From contig JAGDDO010000574.1 in NCBI GenBank assembly GCA_017848205.1, forward strand, positions 1 to 8,950: a DNA stretch of 8,950 nt, in the 5' to 3' direction. A program made the position numbers and the translations under genes. The notes under the pieces are model-generated. The model was not told the origin of the DNA. It was given only the letters and a program-made list of their open reading frames with translations, and ran no database searches. Below, one piece after another: positions 217 through 8,950 of the stretch (its first letter is position 1; each line of letters opens with the position of its first letter). The DNA is from Oscillospiraceae bacterium. GTDB taxonomy: Bacteria > Bacillota_A > Clostridia > Oscillospirales > Ruminococcaceae.

Positions 217-2766
217 TCAGTTCAGATGATTTTTATTCATCCAGCCATAGTATTCACCGGTTTTTTTGTCCCAGCATTCCGCCCAGCTAACGTCATGTGA
301 ATATGCATAGGATTTTACAGTAACTTCTGTTCCCTGTTTAAGCTTTAACATAACTTTTTCCGAACCGTAATCAAGAACATATGATTCACTGTAAACCGGA
401 AGATCCGAAGTGCCCCAGTGTCTAACGGTGTGTTTTTCAAACATGTCTTCATCCAGAGTACGCCTTGATGCCTTCTCTTCACCAGGAATAAAGTATTTCT
501 TATCGGCACGGGACGGATCGAATTTAATAATACGGGTAATACACTTCTTTTCTTCATCAAGGTCTGTTGTTTCAACGCAGACTTCACCGGCATTCAGCGA
601 TACAGATTTTATTCTATGTACCGAATCATCAAGATCAGCAAATTCTTTTCCGAATATATCTGAGAACCGAAGCGGATTACCGGATCTGTCAAACATATGG
701 CAGACTTTAACCCGTTCTGATTCCTGATAGCAGAATATATTCATAGTTGTATCCTGAAAACTCCTGTCAGGTTCCTGGATAGCGCCAATATCTGCTGTGA
801 TTCCTTCTGATTCCAGCTGTTTCTTTGCTTTTTCCAGATTTTCTCTGATCGCAGCAGTTTCTTCAGCAGTAAGAAAAGCTGAACCGTCAAGAACACTGGA
901 TTTTTTTCCTTTTTCATCAGTTATTCTCTTAAAAAACAGATCGCCGCGAAAGGCTTTGTTAATGCTGTCAAGATCAATATTCAGCTTTGACTGATCGAGT
1001 ATCTCTCTCATGTCAAAGAATTCACCTGTTATCATTAAATCAGGAAGATAATACTGGTATGCGTTATCGGCCCAATGAGAGTTGGTGCTACATGATGTTG
1101 TTATGAATTTCATGCGCGGATTGCAGAACAGATACGGGTTGTTTTCCGGAATTTCGACAGTTTCTATTGAGAACTCTTCAATATCACCGGTAAGTCCGGT
1201 AAATTCAGACTTAACAACATCATAATAACATTCATTATAGTAAGAGTCGATTATTTCATCTTTTACAGCATCATTTACATAGTTTATAAAGGTTTCGCCT
1301 TTATAAAACAAATCAGAAAATTCCTTTATCTGCGATCCGTTCCTCATATCAAAATTAAGAAAATATGTTCTTTCCGCGTAATCTCTCCCCGTGCCTCTGG
1401 AATGCCAGAGATTAAAAGAAATATATCCGTTTACCGCCACATAACTTATATGCATACTGTCACTGGAAAATTCCTTGACTTCAGCAGAATTTATAAACGT
1501 TTTTAATTTATCATTTATTTTCTCTTCAACTACTTTGTCCTTAAGAAAATCTACGAGAGTGTCACATTCAATGCTGCCGCTAAAAGCCGATCTGAAATAA
1601 TCCGGCTTATAGTCTTTACCTCTTGGTTTTCCTGTCCCCTTCTTCGTATACGGTACGAGCCAGTCCGGTACTTCCATGTCACTGATCGGCAGATAACCGG
1701 TCTCAAGAACACACATCTGTCCTTCTTCCGAAACAGCCCATTTCAGAAAACGATGTACGCTTTCCGGTGCACTGTCCGTATACATTGCAAATGTTGAGCT
1801 TATAAGCGGATACGATCCGTCAGCAAGAGTGGATTTCGACGGTTTTACTCCGTCTACAGCAATAAATTTAACATCAGATGAATTCTCGTACATCTGAGCT
1901 GCATATGAATAAACTGAATAGCCTATTGCCTGCGCAGAATTATCGTACAAAGTCACATGATCCATAAGACTTCCCATAGATATTATAGGCGATCTGTGCC
2001 CTAACTCCGGATCAACAAGTTCTCTGTCACCCATAAACTGCACCACAAGATTCTGACTTCCGGAATCCTTGTTTCTCTGGAAAGGTACGATCGGTGCATC
2101 GTTTCCTCCGACTTCCTTCCAGTTGGTTATTACTCCTGAATATATGTCCATTAACTGATCCTGCGTAAGTGAGTTTACAGGATTATTCTTGTTTACTACA
2201 AATACAAAAGCTTCCTTTGCAACAGGAGTATAATTAAGGTACACCCCTGCATCGGCAGCTTTCTGTTTCTGCTCGTCGGAAATTGGTACTGTGAATATCA
2301 TATCAGTTTCACCGGAAAGCAGCATATCAAAGGCTTCATGCGTTTTATGATGTTCGACCAGTCTTTCAGCTTCCCTGTATGAAACACCAAGCATTCTGGA
2401 TTTAAAACCAGCTTCGAGCGGTGTGGCGGAAGTTGAACCGTCCATAACGGGAATATTCTCTGTTGTCCAGAAAAAGTCTGTTCCGTCTATCACATTTTTA
2501 AGTTTGATAACATCACGTACATTGATTTTCCAGTCACCGTTGAAATCGTACCAGCGGTTTGTTCCGTTCTTGTCCGGTGTATTTATAACATAGGAAGTAT
2601 ATAAACTGAGATCATCTTCGGAAAGCTTACTGTCATTGCTCATATCTCCCCTGATCTTTTCAGGTTTTTCGTCTTCTGTTTTACTGTTACTTCCGGTCAG
2701 TGCATAAACCGGAAAACATGATGCAGCCATTACTGCAGCAATAATGAATGATATTTGTTTCTTCAT
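217..2766 (-). CDS. Secreted dockerin protein with PstS-like binding domain and SH3-like C-terminus
   Basis: 849 residues. Residues 1-22 look like a signal peptide (KK, hydrophobic core, cleavage after VYA). Residues 40-95 are a type I dockerin with two calcium loops: D41/S43/D45/K47/S49/D52 and D74/N76/D78/K80/N82/D85. Residues about 105-370 resemble PstS-type solute-binding proteins: DGSTSATPL (109-117), SGVITNWKEVGG (210-221), SGSQ (235-238), AIGYSVYSY (280-288). Residues about 395-590 resemble DUF3298/RsiV-type extracellular regions, and about 785-849 an SH3-like domain (GTEVTVKS, WAECW, GWM). In cellulosome-forming ruminococci dockerins bind scaffoldin cohesins, so this protein may be displayed on the surface complex; the ligand is unknown. 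No pst transporter genes adjoin it, which argues against simple phosphate uptake. The start is set by AAAGGAGGG (2771-2779) four bases upstream. Dockerin and binding domain are confident; the overall role is not known. Confidence 0.85.
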   Translation of the reverse strand: MKKQISFIIAAVMAASCFPVYALTGSNSKTEDEKPEKIRGDMSNDSKLSEDDLSLYTSYVINTPDKNGTNRWYDFNGDWKINVRDVIKLKNVIDGTDFFWTTENIPVMDGSTSATPLEAGFKSRMLGVSYREAERLVEHHKTHEAFDMLLSGETDMIFTVPISDEQKQKAADAGVYLNYTPVAKEAFVFVVNKNNPVNSLTQDQLMDIYSGVITNWKEVGGNDAPIVPFQRNKDSGSQNLVVQFMGDRELVDPELGHRSPIISMGSLMDHVTLYDNSAQAIGYSVYSYAAQMYENSSDVKFIAVDGVKPSKSTLADGSYPLISSTFAMYTDSAPESVHRFLKWAVSEEGQMCVLETGYLPISDMEVPDWLVPYTKKGTGKPRGKDYKPDYFRSAFSGSIECDTLVDFLKDKVVEEKINDKLKTFINSAEVKEFSSDSMHISYVAVNGYISFNLWHSRGTGRDYAERTYFLNFDMRNGSQIKEFSDLFYKGETFINYVNDAVKDEIIDSYYNECYYDVVKSEFTGLTGDIEEFSIETVEIPENNPYLFCNPRMKFITTSCSTNSHWADNAYQYYLPDLMITGEFFDMREILDQSKLNIDLDSINKAFRGDLFFKRITDEKGKKSSVLDGSAFLTAEETAAIRENLEKAKKQLESEGITADIGAIQEPDRSFQDTTMNIFCYQESERVKVCHMFDRSGNPLRFSDIFGKEFADLDDSVHRIKSVSLNAGEVCVETTDLDEEKKCITRIIKFDPSRADKKYFIPGEEKASRRTLDEDMFEKHTVRHWGTSDLPVYSESYVLDYGSEKVMLKLKQGTEVTVKSYAYSHDVSWAECWDKKTGEYYGWMNKNHLN

Positions 2767-5478: not shown

Positions 5479-5507
5479 TTGACAAACAGAACAAATTAAT
5501 ATATCAT
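5479..5507 (+). promoter_or_regulatory. Main candidate promoter for glnN
   Basis: TTGACA (5479-5484) and TATCAT (5502-5507) with a 17-base spacer; the start is expected near 5514. It begins 23 bases after the murF stop and would give a leader of nearly 190 bases containing the whole folded element at 5537-5681. Confidence 0.65.
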
Positions 5508-5536
5508 ATATTTATATACTTTAAATTGGAACAATG

Positions 5537-5681
5537 GCGTTTCAGTTTCGTCTATAATATCTGTAACTAAGGAATAATACCAGCCGGAGCTTCACTGCAG
5601 TCTTTCTGATGGTGCGGCACCTGCATATTTTTCCTGAATTAAAAATCCGTTATTATTATGATGAAATTGAAACGCTTTTTT
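5537..5681 (+). promoter_or_regulatory. Structured glnN leader, candidate transcription attenuator or riboswitch
   Basis: GCGTTTCAGTTTCGTC (5537-5552) pairs along its full length with GATGAAATTGAAACGC (5660-5675), two of the 16 pairs being G-U. After one bulged T (5553) the helix continues six more pairs (5554-5559 with 5654-5659). TTTTTT (5676-5681) follows the helix directly, and the glnN ribosome binding site AGGAGG (5685-5690) comes four bases later. The interior can fold further: AGGAATAATA (5570-5579) with TATTTTTCCT (5626-5635, one mismatch), enclosing GCCG/CGGC (5583-5586, 5615-5618) and a CAC-TG-CAG stem (5593-5600) around the loop TCTTT. GGTG-CGG-CACC (5611-5621) is a competing hairpin. 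Position and T tract fit conditional termination ahead of glnN. I do not recognise a known riboswitch class or an ANTAR-type tandem hairpin. It could alternatively be a leaky terminator for ddl-murF. Confidence 0.6.
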
Positions 5682-5700
5682 AACAGGAGGATAAATTATT

Positions 5701-7800
5701 ATGGAAGAATCAAAGAGCGTCGCATCAATGTTCGGCTGTAATGTATTCAATCAGCAGGTAATGAGAGAACGTCTTACAAAGGATGTTTACAAAGCTGTAA
5801 TGCAGACCAAGAAAATGGGTACTCCGCTTAACAGCGGTGTGGCAAGTGTAGTTGCAAATGCCATGAAGAACTGGGCTGTTGAAAAGGGCGCAACACATTA
5901 CACACACTGGTTCCACCCTATGACAGGTGTAACAGCTGAAAAGCATGACGCTTTTCTTTCACCAAACCCGGACGGAACTATAATCCTTGAATTCTCAGGC
6001 AAGGAACTCATAAAGGGCGAACCGGACGCTTCCTCATTCCCATCAGGCGGTCTCCGTTCAACATTTGAAGCAAGAGGATATACCGCGTGGGATCCTACTT
6101 CCGATGCATTCATCAAGGACGGAACACTCTACATTCCGACAGCCTTCTGTTCATATACAGGCGAGACACTCGACAAGAAGACACCGCTCCTTCGTTCAAT
6201 GGATGTTCTCAGCGAACAGGCTCTCAGAATTCTCAGACTTTTCGGAAATACAACAGCTACAAGAGTATTCTCAACAGCTGGTGCTGAACAGGAATATTTC
6301 CTCGTTGACAAGGCTCTCTACGACAAGCGTGAAGACCTCGTTATCACAGGCAGAACACTTTTCGGTGCAAAGCCTCCGAAGGGTCAGGAACTTGAAGACC
6401 ACTACTTCGGCAACATCAAGGAAAGAATTTCCGCCTACATGCACGAACTCGACGAGGAACTCTGGAAGCTCGGTATTCCTGCAAAGACAAAGCACAACGA
6501 AGTTGCTCCGGCTCAGCACGAACTCGCTCCTGTTTTCGAAACAACAAACATTGCTTCCGACCACAACCAGCTTACAATGGAACTCATGAAGAAGATAGCT
6601 CTCAAGCACGGTCTTGTGTGTCTCCTTCACGAAAAGCCGTTTGCAGGCGTTAACGGCTCAGGAAAGCACAACAACTGGTCAATGGCTTCAAACGACGGAC
6701 AGAATCTTCTCGATCCGGGCGACACACCTACTGAAAACACACAGTTCCTTACAATACTCGTAGCATTCATCAAGGCAGTGAACAAGTACTCCGACCTTCT
6801 CAGACTTTCAGCATCAAGTGCCGGAAACGATCACCGTCTCGGTGCCAACGAAGCTCCTCCTGCTATTGTTTCAATGTTCCTCGGTGACGAACTCCAGGGC
6901 ATACTCGACGCTCTTGAAAATGATACAAAGGCAGAAGCAAACTCAAACATTAAGTTCAAGATCGGCGTTGACGCTCTTCCTTCATTCAAGAAGGACAACA
7001 CAGACCGTAACAGAACATCACCTATGGCATTCACAGGAAACAAGTTTGAATTCAGAATGCTCGGTTCTGCAGACTCGATCTCATGCACAAACGTAATCAT
7101 AAACACTGCAATGGCAGACGTTCTCTGCGAATTTGCCGATGCTCTTGAAGGTGCTGAAAACTTCAACGAAAAATTAAAGGAAATACTCGTCAAGACTTAC
7201 AAGGAAAACAAGCAGATCATATTCAACGGCAACGGTTACTCCGATGAATGGGTAAAGGAAGCTACCGAAGTAAGAGGTCTTCCAAACTACGTATCAACTG
7301 TTGACTGTCTCCCTGAATATCTTGCTGACAAAAACGTTGCCATGTTCGAAAAGTTCAGGGTATACTCCAGAGTCGAAGTAGCTTCAAGAACTGAAGTGCT
7401 TCTTGACAACTACAGCAAGGTTATAAACATTGAAGCTCTTACAATGATCGACATGGTAAAGAAGCAGATCTACCCTGCTGTTATGGAATACACAAAGGAC
7501 GTATGCAATGCTCTTACTTCAATGAAGAATGCCGGCATCGACAATCCTGCACAGGAAAAGCTCGCTCACAAGCTTTCCGGTTCACTTAACTGTTTAAGCA
7601 ATGCAGTTACTGAACTTGAACAGGTACTTCTCAATGCCAAGGATCATTCTGAAGATGTATACAAGCTCTCACGCTTCTACCGTGATGAAGTATTCGGTAA
7701 AATGCAGAGCCTCAGAGCTGTTGCAGATGAGCTTGAAACCATTGTTTCAGATAAATACTGGCCATTCCCTGTTTACTCTGAATTAATGTTCAAAATCTGA
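5701..7800 (+). CDS. glnN: Glutamine synthetase type III
   Basis: 699 residues, matching the roughly 700-residue GSIII family and far longer than GSI or GSII. It makes glutamine from glutamate, ammonia and ATP in the cytoplasm, the entry point of ammonium assimilation. Family segments visible: [11 protein letters not shown] (76-86), [20 protein letters not shown] (97-116), AEQEYFLVD (195-203, likely metal-binding glutamates), [16 protein letters not shown] (265-280), [12 protein letters not shown] (316-327, the catalytic GSGKHNN loop), [17 protein letters not shown] (375-391), [18 protein letters not shown] (435-452) and [10 protein letters not shown] (508-517). The C-terminal stretch from about 570 is helical and GSIII-specific. 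AGGAGG (5685-5690), ten bases before the ATG, fixes the start. No frameshift or missing catalytic segment was seen. Expression is probably controlled by the folded leader just upstream. The gene looks monocistronic. Confidence 0.97.
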
Positions 7801-7803
7801 TCA

Positions 7804-7906
7804 GTTAAGAAAACATTGACTAATTCCTGGAACCGGGGCGAAGCCCCGGTTCCAGCAAGGATTTGATAAATAAATCTTCGGTTTCTTAAAAAACAGTTTT
7901 TCTGAC
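7804..7906. repeat. Folded intergenic repeat, copy 2
   Basis: Starts four bases after the glnN stop. The outer arms GTTAAGAAAAC (7804-7814) and GTTTTTCTGAC (7896-7906) pair at 10 of 11 positions including G-U. Inside are a perfect 13-bp GC-rich hairpin with a GAA loop (7827-7839 with 7843-7855) and a weaker hairpin AGGATTT/AAATCTT (7858-7864, 7872-7878). The GGGGC-GCCCC hairpin, the following GATTT-(A/T)-AATAAATC hairpin and the right end (TTAAA, then CAGTTTT) match copy 1 at 92-201 in order and plus-strand orientation, while the stems differ in sequence. TTAAGAAAAC (7805-7814) can also pair with GGTTTCTTAA (7880-7889), so two outer folds compete. It may help end or protect the glnN mRNA, but has no clean T tract on the plus strand. 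Confidence 0.65.
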
Positions 7907-7928
7907 AGAGGGGGCAAAAGCCCCCTCT
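7907..7928 (+). other. Strong GC hairpin upstream of the ABC-F gene
   Basis: AGAGGGGGC-AAAA-GCCCCCTCT is a perfect 9-bp stem with an AAAA loop. It touches repeat copy 2 on its left and ends nine bases before the AAAGGAG ribosome binding site (7938-7944) of the ABC-F gene. It is followed by CTCTTATG rather than a T run, so it is a poor intrinsic terminator. It may mark the 3' end of glnN mRNA or act in the ABC-F leader. I found no convincing separate promoter for the ABC-F gene in 7801-7952. Confidence 0.55.
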
Positions 7929-7952
7929 CTCTTATGTAAAGGAGAAAATACA

Positions 7953-8950
7953 ATGAGCATACTCAATGTTGAACACGTTACCCACGGTTTCGGTGCAAGA
8001 CAGATACTTGACGATTCCTCCTTCAGACTTCTTAAGGGAGAACATGTTGGTCTTGTCGGTGCAAACGGTGAAGGTAAATCAACATTTCTCAATATAATCA
8101 CAGGTAAACTTCAGCCGGATGAAGGTAAGATCGAATGGTGCAGACACATCACCACCGGTTATCTCGATCAGTACAGCACGCTTACTCCTGGCAAAACCAT
8201 ACGTGAAGTACTCAGGGAAGCATTCCAGCATCTTTCCGACCTTGAACAGGAAATGCTTGAACTCTACGAAAAGATGGGCGATGCTGACGAAGAAGAAATG
8301 AATGCCATGATGGAAGACGTCGGCGAAATTCAGGAGATACTCGACCAGAGCGGATACTACACCATCGACAGCAAAATCACTGAATACGCAAACGGTCTCG
8401 GCCTCGGTGAGATAGGGCTTGACCACGACGTATCACAGCTTTCCGGCGGTCAGCGAATGAAGGTACTGCTTACAAAGCTCCTTCTCGAAAACCCGATGAT
8501 CCTCATTCTCGACGAGCCTACAAACTTCCTCGACGAGAACCATATCGCATGGCTCCAGAACTTCCTTCAGAACTACGAAAACGCATTTATTCTTGTTTCA
8601 CATGACGTTCCTTTCATGAACTCAGTAGTCAATGTCATCTACAACATCGAGCACGCCGTTCTGACAAGATACACAGGCAACTACGAAGACTTCAAGAGAA
8701 TGTATGAACTGAAGAAACGTCAGACTGAACAGGCCTATGAAAAGCAGCAAAAGGAAATTGCACATCTGCAGGAGTTTATTGCAAAGAACAAGGCAAGAGC
8801 TACTACTGCGACAATGGCGCGTTCACGTCAGAAAAAGCTTGAAGGCATGGAGATAATCACTATCGAAAAGGAAAAGATCAAGCCTTCCTTCTCATTCAAA
8901 TCAGCAAGAACTCCGGGCAAGGTCGTAATTGAAGGAAAAGACATTATAAT
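7953..8950 (+). CDS. ABC-F family ATPase, YfmM-like (3' end outside the window)
   Basis: The first 332 codons are present, open to the right edge. ABC-F proteins are soluble tandem ATPases without membrane segments that act on the ribosome (translation factors or, in some branches, antibiotic protection). Domain 1 is complete: Walker A GANGEGKST (36-44), signature LSGGQ (163-167), Walker B and D-loop LILDEPTNFLD (184-194), switch SHD (216-218). An acidic arm-like insert lies at about 84-135. The inter-domain linker (about 245-315) is charged and helical, with KKRQTEQAYEKQQKEI (254-269) and ARSRQKKLEGME (289-300). The second domain begins just before the edge. The start MSILNVEHVTHGFG and GEHVGLVGANGEGKST closely resemble B. 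subtilis YfmM as I remember it; paralogues such as YkpA and YdiF fit less well. AAAGGAG (7938-7944) lies eight bases before the ATG. Resistance function should not be assumed. Confidence 0.9.
   Translation, partial: MSILNVEHVTHGFGARQILDDSSFRLLKGEHVGLVGANGEGKSTFLNIITGKLQPDEGKIEWCRHITTGYLDQYSTLTPGKTIREVLREAFQHLSDLEQEMLELYEKMGDADEEEMNAMMEDVGEIQEILDQSGYYTIDSKITEYANGLGLGEIGLDHDVSQLSGGQRMKVLLTKLLLENPMILILDEPTNFLDENHIAWLQNFLQNYENAFILVSHDVPFMNSVVNVIYNIEHAVLTRYTGNYEDFKRMYELKKRQTEQAYEKQQKEIAHLQEFIAKNKARATTATMARSRQKKLEGMEIITIEKEKIKPSFSFKSARTPGKVVIEGKDII

What the first reader, a model, noticed from the sequence alone, without database searches (positions are those of the whole stretch)
5514..5700. Candidate attenuator or riboswitch controlling type III glutamine synthetase
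The glnN leader contains a 22-bp long-range helix (5537-5559 with 5654-5675, one bulge) followed at once by TTTTTT and then the ribosome binding site. The roughly 95-nt interior folds into further stems with competing alternatives. A terminator directly before the start codon of a nitrogen-assimilation gene makes sense only if it is conditional. The known glutamine riboswitches are mainly cyanobacterial and I do not recognise their motif here; nor do I see the ANTAR tandem-hairpin pattern. This may be an undescribed nitrogen-responsive RNA.
Basis: partly seen in the sequence, partly recalled or inferred. Interest (0 to 1): 0.75.

Follow-up and report, generated by a model that had tools for sequence, protein, structure and literature searches.

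The report
One-hairpin protein-controlled nitrogen gene attenuator
The leader of this glutamine synthetase gene is a switchable stop signal near the start of the messenger RNA, probably held open by a known type of RNA-binding protein (ANTAR) through one small hairpin instead of the usual two, and gut and rumen bacteria appear to use the same switch on many nitrogen genes.

Summary
Its six-base loop carries A1 and G4, the signature of ANTAR-protein targets. All 10 readable leaders of the genus keep both mutually exclusive structures (one with a stem mismatch), with compensatory changes. 60 of 156 glnN upstream regions carry the unit, against 1 hit in 20 x 156 shuffles. Units also precede amtB, asnA, a glutamate-synthase-like gene and glnA-ANTAR operons. 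A riboswitch is unlikely: the interior is lineage-specific.

Known ANTAR targets have two hexaloops, and deleting the first impairs induction in E. faecalis. Here there is one, near the 5' end of the mRNA, with no excess of a second. The likely regulator is a NitR-like ANTAR protein encoded after type-I glnA in kin, mostly without the phosphorylatable aspartate. Protein binding is inferred, not shown; the window's own genome is not held, and two nearly complete genomes without ANTAR carry a unit. Verdict: new variant of a known kind.

The parts
5479..5484 (+). -35 element TTGACA
   Evidence: sequence; TTGACA-N17-TATxAT-like promoters recur at this place in relatives
5502..5507 (+). -10 element TATCAT; transcription start predicted near 5514-5516
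   Evidence: spacing 17 to TTGACA; start site inferred, not measured
5528..5543 (+). ANTAR-type hexaloop hairpin GGAAC-AATGGC-GTTTC (loop 5533-5538, A1 = 5533, G4 = 5536); the stem can extend to 5523-5548
   Evidence: kept in all 10 readable leaders of the genus, one (G003) with a single stem mismatch
5537..5559 (+). 5' arm of the terminator helix; 5537-5543 overlap the last loop bases and 3' arm of the hexaloop hairpin
5560..5653 (+). interior of the terminator, about 95 nt, lineage-specific extension
   Evidence: similar DNA in G001 and G010 of 6 kin searched; 42-81 nt from loop start to T-tract in ten other leaders, 143-155 in these three
5654..5675 (+). 3' arm of the terminator helix
5676..5681 (+). 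T6 tract, expected termination point
   Evidence: sequence
5685..5690 (+). ribosome binding site AGGAGG
   Evidence: sequence
5701..7800 (+). glnN, type III glutamine synthetase, the controlled gene
   Evidence: Pfam GSIII_N, Gln-synt_C, Gln-synt_C-ter

Best explanation
The glnN leader is a transcription attenuator controlled by an ANTAR-domain antiterminator through a single hexaloop hairpin near the 5' end of the transcript. By default the nascent RNA pairs 5537-5559 with 5654-5675 and stops at the T6 tract. When nitrogen assimilation is needed, a NitR-like ANTAR protein (in near kin encoded directly after type-I glnA) holds GGAAC-AATGGC-GTTTC as a hairpin, which takes the first seven bases of the terminator's 5' arm, so polymerase reads into glnN. 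Shown by sequence: both structures, their mutual exclusion, their joint conservation and compensatory change, the place next to the promoter, the nitrogen regulon, and the co-occurrence with ANTAR genes. Inferred: that ANTAR binds this hairpin, that binding antiterminates, that the signal is nitrogen limitation, and that glnA or its product feeds the signal in.
For: Loop and overlap: with no loop sequence assumed, 41 hexaloop hairpin calls (Watson-Crick stem >= 4) overlap strong terminators upstream of glnN, and 36 of them have A1 and G4 (counted by eye from the list); the published eut core AGCAANGRRGCUY (PMC3369931) reads AGC-AANGRR-GCU, close to AGC-AANGGC-GCT here. Frequency: 60 of 156 glnN upstream regions against 1 positive in 20 x 156 dinucleotide shuffles. 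Covariation: all 10 readable leaders of the genus, and 3 of other genera picked from the positives, keep both folds (G003 with one stem mismatch), with more than one Watson-Crick type at 3 of the 5 inner hairpin pairs and 10 of 14 terminator pairs. On a 32-unit alignment the terminator is 96% paired, covariation 0.72 against 0.34 shuffled; the hairpin is 96% paired, 0.61 against 0.28 (units chosen for pairing). Regulon: of 170 units, 124 have within 700 nt downstream glnN (67), a GATase_2 glutamate-synthase-like gene (25), amtB (21), asnA (8), glnA (2) or ANTAR (1) (loci largely chosen as glnN surroundings). Co-occurrence: strict unit before glnN in 26 of 41 ANTAR-bearing and 3 of 15 ANTAR-lacking relatives, Fisher p 0.006; the 3 are 81-88% complete. 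Class survey: 20 of 343 genomes hold the CAGC-type unit pattern, 19 of these 20 have an ANTAR domain against 185 of 343 overall, p 9e-5. ANTAR gene directly 3' of glnA in 25 of 30 loci. EutV contacts K149, E160 and M172 are invariant in the 21 rows (numbering). A review credits NitR of Clostridium saccharobutylicum with antitermination of GS/GOGAT genes on N limitation (PMC6316151 passage).
Against: The window's own genome is not held, so its ANTAR gene is inferred from kin. Two genomes at least 95% complete without a PF03861 match still carry a unit: G303, and G053 before asnA with a poor T-tract. 96 of 156 glnN upstreams lack the strict unit, and so do 15 of 41 ANTAR-bearing genomes before glnN; some are misses of the scan (G003 has one stem mismatch; G017 a short T-tract), others have a unit before asnA or amtB that lie ahead of glnN (G044, G038). 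For the hairpin, two of the five covariation measures do not exceed the shuffles (pairs with a change on both sides 381/500, further pair types 39/500). EutV's ANTAR part and NasR bind a single hairpin less well than the pair, and P1 deletion impairs eutP induction. Several EutV contacts are not kept: R142 in none of 36 rows, Tyr164 is His in all 36, R168 is Glu or Gln, N173 is mostly Asp, R177 is Ser, Thr, Lys or Pro (AmiR also has His at the Tyr164 position). In the window the -10 box ends 20 nt before the 5-bp stem, more than the usual 9-13. No expression or binding data.
Confidence: 0.78

Rival explanations
1. A metabolite riboswitch (glutamine, ammonia or other) whose aptamer is the ~95-nt interior and whose expression platform is the terminator.
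For: The interior has a stable predicted hairpin and the gene is nitrogen-related.
Against: Similar interior DNA in 2 of 6 near kin searched (G006 not informative, its contig ends in the leader); ten other leaders have only 42-81 nt from loop to T-tract, with unlike interiors; many units have only a short loop between the arms; no Rfam match in the window leader at E <= 1 or, at gathering score, in 20 related loci.
Confidence: 0.04
2. A 5'-proximal hairpin plus terminator bound by a different RNA-binding protein (not ANTAR), or a purely RNA-based timing or stability element.
For: Units occur in G303 and G053, where no ANTAR domain was found; only one hexaloop, unlike published ANTAR targets; several EutV contact residues are not kept.
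Against: A1 and G4 match the ANTAR signature with no loop assumed; 19 of 20 pattern-bearing genomes have ANTAR; near kin have a glnA-ANTAR pair, and in two fetched genomes (G036, G019) a unit lies before that pair.
Confidence: 0.13
3. An ordinary constitutive terminator between the Mur ligase gene and glnN, with the hairpin a by-product of its 5' arm; glnN is driven by another promoter.
For: It lies between two genes, and a TATAAT occurs inside the helix at 5553-5558.
Against: A good promoter sits just upstream of the unit, as in relatives; no good -35 lies 15-19 nt before the inner TATAAT; T6 ends 3 nt before the ribosome binding site, so a downstream promoter is unlikely; the loop bases and the hairpin 5' arm, which the terminator does not need, are conserved.
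Confidence: 0.05

Closest known systems
ANTAR-target RNA with two hexaloops (eutP/G/S/A of Enterococcus faecalis, nasF, amiE; PMC3369931, PMC8934654)
   Same: Short stem with six-base loop, A1 and G4; the terminator-proximal hairpin overlaps the 5' arm of an intrinsic terminator; nitrogen genes; ANTAR proteins in the genomes.
   Different: Only one hexaloop, close to the -10 box (9-13 nt in 78 of 132 units with a promoter; 20 nt in the window), so a P1 with its linker hardly fits; the published search models require two stems, so by their definition they would not include it.
NitR of Clostridium saccharobutylicum (review passage in PMC6316151; primary paper not held)
   Same: ANTAR regulator of ammonium assimilation, said to act by antitermination on GS/GOGAT genes under N limitation; that nitR follows glnA is recalled, not from a call.
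   Different: The RNA element of that system was not seen here, so I cannot say whether a single hexaloop was already proposed there.
AmiR/AmiC and NasT/NasS (ANTAR protein held by a partner; recalled, for NasS-NasT also the abstract start listed)
   Same: ANTAR protein with a partner; for AmiR a receiver without the phospho-aspartate (recalled); AmiR also has His at the Tyr164 position.
   Different: The neighbour here is a glutamine synthetase, not a binding-protein-like sensor; a sensing role for GlnA is conjecture.
Sac/Bgl-type RAT antiterminators
   Same: A single alternative hairpin overlaps the terminator.
   Different: RAT is 29-30 nt (PMC3369931 passage) and its proteins are unrelated (recalled); the loop here is the ANTAR hexaloop.

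Membership tests
Canonical (dual) ANTAR-target RNA | Hexaloop hairpin with A1 and G4 | tested here: met
   AATGGC at 5533-5538; 36 of 41 hexaloop calls with no loop assumed are A1/G4
Canonical (dual) ANTAR-target RNA | Hairpin overlaps the 5' arm of an intrinsic terminator | tested here: met
   5537-5543 shared; both folds kept in all 10 readable leaders of the genus, one with a stem mismatch
Canonical (dual) ANTAR-target RNA | Second hexaloop hairpin P1 with a linker (5-12 nt in the E. faecalis eut genes) | tested here: not met
   9 of 170 units have a second A1/G4 hexaloop ending within 25 nt upstream, shuffled 5.3 +/- 2.3; in the window about 13 nt lie between the predicted start and the 5-bp stem
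Canonical (dual) ANTAR-target RNA | ANTAR protein in the same genome | tested here: inconclusive
   own genome not held; nearest genome G001 has one, 8 of 11 genomes of the genus have a match
Canonical (dual) ANTAR-target RNA | Binding by an ANTAR dimer and antitermination | not testable with these tools
   needs EMSA and in vitro transcription
Glutamine riboswitches and other Rfam families | Match to the Rfam covariance model | tested here: not met
   no match in the leader at E <= 1; none at gathering score in 20 related loci
NitR-like ANTAR regulators (the candidate regulator, in kin only) | Receiver plus ANTAR domain encoded after glnA | tested here: met
   not in the window: PF00072 plus PF03861 in G001; glnA directly upstream in 25 of 30 loci

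The most novel reading that the evidence does not exclude
A distinct class of ANTAR attenuators that work with one hexaloop near the 5' end of the mRNA, some arrayed as tandem complete units, is a general nitrogen-control system of gut and rumen Clostridia (glnN, amtB, asnA, glutamate-synthase-like genes, glnA-ANTAR). Its ANTAR protein mostly has no phosphorylatable receiver and is controlled by a partner, perhaps the neighbouring type-I glutamine synthetase itself, so that one GS would sense nitrogen and set the expression of another.
Probability: 0.45. Interest if true: 0.78.

Novelty: new variant of a known kind. Interest (0 to 1): 0.62.

Why it matters
[quoted passage not shown] If right, these leaders are a natural, widespread class that works with one, which would force a revision of that model or reveal a compensating feature such as the place next to the start site. 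They would also give many unstudied rumen and gut Clostridia a predicted nitrogen regulon that searches built on two stems would by their definition miss.

Tried and rejected
Riboswitch: rejected for want of any conserved interior and of an Rfam match. A hidden P1: sought within 25 nt on either side; upstream 9 of 170 against 5.3 +/- 2.3 shuffled, downstream 4 of 170 against 2.4 +/- 1.3. Repeat element as the source of the interior: one match each in G001 and G010 and none in four other kin, so it is not a dispersed repeat there. Promoter inside the helix (TATAAT 5553-5558): no good -35 at 15-19 nt. The short pattern CARYAAWGGCGYTK is too loose: matches and reversed controls are of the same order in many genomes. 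The covariance model R1 also finds plain terminators (a capped list scored with strict filters): of 40 regions fetched round its matches by my choice, 23 show a hexaloop unit in their first 312 nt (L235 and L250 at another place than the match) and 17 do not; of 11 more 2 do; the other 4 regions lie round ANTAR or glnN genes. His at the Tyr164 position as a mark unique to this clade: dropped, because AmiR has it too. Papers: in the listings and passages seen from the searches I found no description of single-hexaloop attenuators, but most subscription papers are not held, the primary NitR paper could not be read, and no supplementary table was open to me.

Caveats on counts: the glnN set is the window, 30 loci, 48 further places (three C-terminal fragments were not fetched) and the best 80 of 592 matches (a capped list), 159 in all; deduplication removed only one exact repeat of the last 260 nt and 2 were too short, so kin are not independent. 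The 41 hairpin calls can count one leader more than once. The 170 units include homologous copies and some strays. The 36 ANTAR rows include at least 3 repeats (G001/L119, L121/L245, L113/L262); one search has 21 rows without these. One search takes all 10 readable leaders of the genus and 3 of other genera that I picked from the positives; it anchors each on AANGGCG and takes the best register. ANTAR presence for the 20 pattern-bearing genomes was read by eye from the list, and a few of the 20 matches (for example L275, L282) do not look like leaders. Some gene names in regions are by eye only (purF in L236, CTP synthase in L244 and L251, the kin of scanned proteins in L221 and L253).

Full report
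The observation. The region folds far better than its shuffles (z -4.5), and the gene is a type III glutamine synthetase. No Rfam family matches the leader at E <= 1.

Just 5' of the helix lies GGAAC-AATGGC-GTTTC (5528-5543): a 5-pair stem, extendable to 10, with a six-base loop. The last two loop bases and the 3' arm (5537-5543) are the first seven bases of the terminator's 5' arm, so hairpin and full terminator exclude each other. Folding the growing transcript from 5515 shows the hairpin, later joined by the interior stem, until the 3' arm is made; then the terminator wins (-49.8 against -37.6 kcal/mol with the hairpin forced). The loop has A at position 1 and G at position 4, the signature of ANTAR targets (PMC3369931, passages), and the published eut core AGCAANGRRGCUY has the same layout.

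Conservation. The window's genome is not held; the nearest is G001. In the genus, all ten leaders that could be read (the window and nine others) keep the unit at the same place; G003 has one mismatch in the hairpin stem. Of the other two genus genomes, G006's contig ends in the leader and G007 gave no glnN match. With three leaders of other genera of the family, picked from the positives, more than one Watson-Crick pair type occurs at 3 of the 5 inner hairpin pairs and 10 of the 14 terminator pairs examined. Over all glnN upstream regions gathered (159, one repeat removed, two too short) 60 of 156 carry the strict unit, against 1 positive in 20 rounds of 156 dinucleotide shuffles. With no loop sequence assumed, 41 hexaloop hairpin calls overlap strong terminators, and 36 of them have A1 and G4 (counted by eye). 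On a 32-unit alignment terminator and hairpin are each about 96% paired, with covariation scores about twice the shuffled mean and about four times the best slid control; for the hairpin two of five measures do not exceed the shuffles. Those units were chosen for pairing, so one search is the fairer test.

The interior is not the point. The 95-nt interior has a like in G001 and G010 among six genomes searched (G006 is not informative). Ten other leaders have 42-81 nt from loop start to T-tract, against 143-155 in these three, and many units elsewhere have only a short loop between the arms. A conserved aptamer is therefore excluded for the class and very unlikely for the window.

One hexaloop, not two. 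Published ANTAR targets have two hexaloops, 5-12 nt apart in the eut genes; deleting P1 or changing the linker impairs induction in E. faecalis. [quoted passage not shown] Here, of 170 distinct units, 132 have a sigma-70-like promoter within 100 nt; the end of the -10 lies 3-15 nt before the 4-bp stem in 94 (shuffled mean 8.6), in 78 of them 9-13 nt; 38 have no such promoter. So the hairpin is usually at or near the 5' end of the RNA and no P1 fits. A second A1/G4 hexaloop within 25 nt upstream is found in 9 of 170, chance level. The window is looser than the mode: its -10 ends at 5507 and the 5-bp stem starts at 5528, which leaves about 13 nt after the predicted start, still too little for a hexaloop hairpin and a linker. 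Some leaders carry two complete units in series, each with its own terminator (for example L222, L225, L244).

Regulon. Of 170 units, 124 have within 700 nt downstream one of six nitrogen genes: glnN 67, a class-II amidotransferase/glutamate-synthase-like gene 25, amtB 21, asnA 8, glnA 2, ANTAR 1; 46 have none of these (identities of example proteins). The glnN share is inflated because most loci were fetched as glnN surroundings. Of 40 regions fetched by my choice round matches of the covariance model, 23 show a hexaloop unit and 17 do not; of 11 further ones 2 do. They added leaders of amtB-PII, a RelA/SpoT-domain gene, a circularly permuted ATP-grasp gene and, by eye, purF.

The likely regulator. 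42 of 61 relatives have an ANTAR domain. Among 56 genomes with a readable glnN upstream, the strict unit is in 26 of 41 with ANTAR and 3 of 15 without (p 0.006, not corrected for kinship); the three exceptions are incomplete assemblies of the window's genus. In a class-wide draw, 20 of 343 genomes hold the CAGC-type pattern and 19 of these 20 have ANTAR, against 185 of 343 overall. Counter-examples are G303 and, for asnA, G053. Of named species, the records of Herbinix hemicellulosilytica (L037), Clostridium methylpentosum (L048) and Ruminococcus flavefaciens YAD2003 (L049) hold units and their genomes an ANTAR domain; Neglectibacter sp. X58 (L096) has ANTAR but no strict unit before this glnN. 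The ANTAR gene follows type-I glnA in 25 of 30 loci. Its protein has a receiver and an ANTAR domain, but the phospho-aspartate is replaced in 34 of 36 rows, at least 3 of them repeats, and in 20 of the 21 rows. EutV's RNA contacts K149, E160 and M172 are invariant; R142, R168 and R177 are not kept, and Tyr164, which stacks on G4, is His. AmiR also has His, Rv1626 Phe and NasR Trp. This points to a partner-controlled ANTAR protein rather than a kinase-controlled one; that GlnA is the partner is conjecture from gene order. A review passage credits NitR of C. saccharobutylicum with antitermination of GS/GOGAT genes on N limitation, which fits; the primary paper was not available.

Mechanism, with status. 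Default termination at 5676-5681: inferred from sequence, strong. Hairpin and terminator exclusive: shown by sequence. Both selected: shown by compensatory change. ANTAR as the binder: inferred from loop signature, co-occurrence and regulon. N limitation as the signal: inferred from the genes and the NitR precedent. GlnA as the sensor: speculative.

Novelty. It works like an ANTAR attenuator, but fails the published dual-hexaloop definition, so I do not file it as a canonical member; it is a new variant. In the listings and passages I saw no paper describes single-hexaloop ANTAR attenuators, but the library lacks most subscription journals, and the supplementary tables of PMC3369931 were not read. 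What was seen of the papers: PMC3369931 abstract, two sections and passages; PMC8934654 one section and passages; PMC8164766, PMC7496416, PMC6316151 and PMC6958937 passages only (the last is unrelated).

Noticed in passing
window 217-2766 (-): PBP_like_2 protein with a weak N-terminal dockerin type I match (E 0.005, below cut-off) and a weak C-terminal GW match: possibly a cellulosome-linked binding-like protein.
   Followed up: partly
window about 115-185 and 7825-7890; L259 about 2260-2400: Similar palindromic stretches with GCGAAGC-like loops followed by AATAAATC-like and TTCTTAA- or TTCCTTAA-like sequence: perhaps a dispersed palindromic repeat of this genus (by eye).
   Followed up: no
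window 7879-7955: Sub-threshold Rfam match to freshwater-2 (29.2 bits, cut-off 49.9) before the ABC-transporter-ATPase gene; probably chance.
   Followed up: no
L244 241-2051 (G001) and L251 371-2179 (G010): amtB is split over three overlapping ORFs in G001 but is one ORF in G010: a frameshift or an assembly error.
   Followed up: no
L244, L251: The second glnN of G001 and G010 appears to sit in an amtB - CTP synthase (by eye) - glnN run whose leader carries hexaloop units (two in G001, one found in G010).
   Followed up: partly
L220 (G010), L253 (G001, by eye): A RelA/SpoT-domain protein gene under the same type of attenuator: a possible link between nitrogen status and (p)ppGpp.
   Followed up: partly
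L222 (G008), L221 (G004, by eye): A circularly permuted ATP-grasp gene followed by a second gene under hexaloop units, two in tandem in L222.
   Followed up: partly
L236 (G050): A hexaloop unit before a gene that reads like purF by eye; not scanned against a library.
   Followed up: no
G017:C2:7066-7374: One 287-aa frame with two adjacent ANTAR-domain matches.
   Followed up: no
L276, L295: Units whose terminator 3' arm extends to pair with the hairpin's 5' arm and the first loop bases as well (CAGCAAAGGCGCTG...CAGCGCCTTTGCTG), making a near-perfect palindrome.
   Followed up: no
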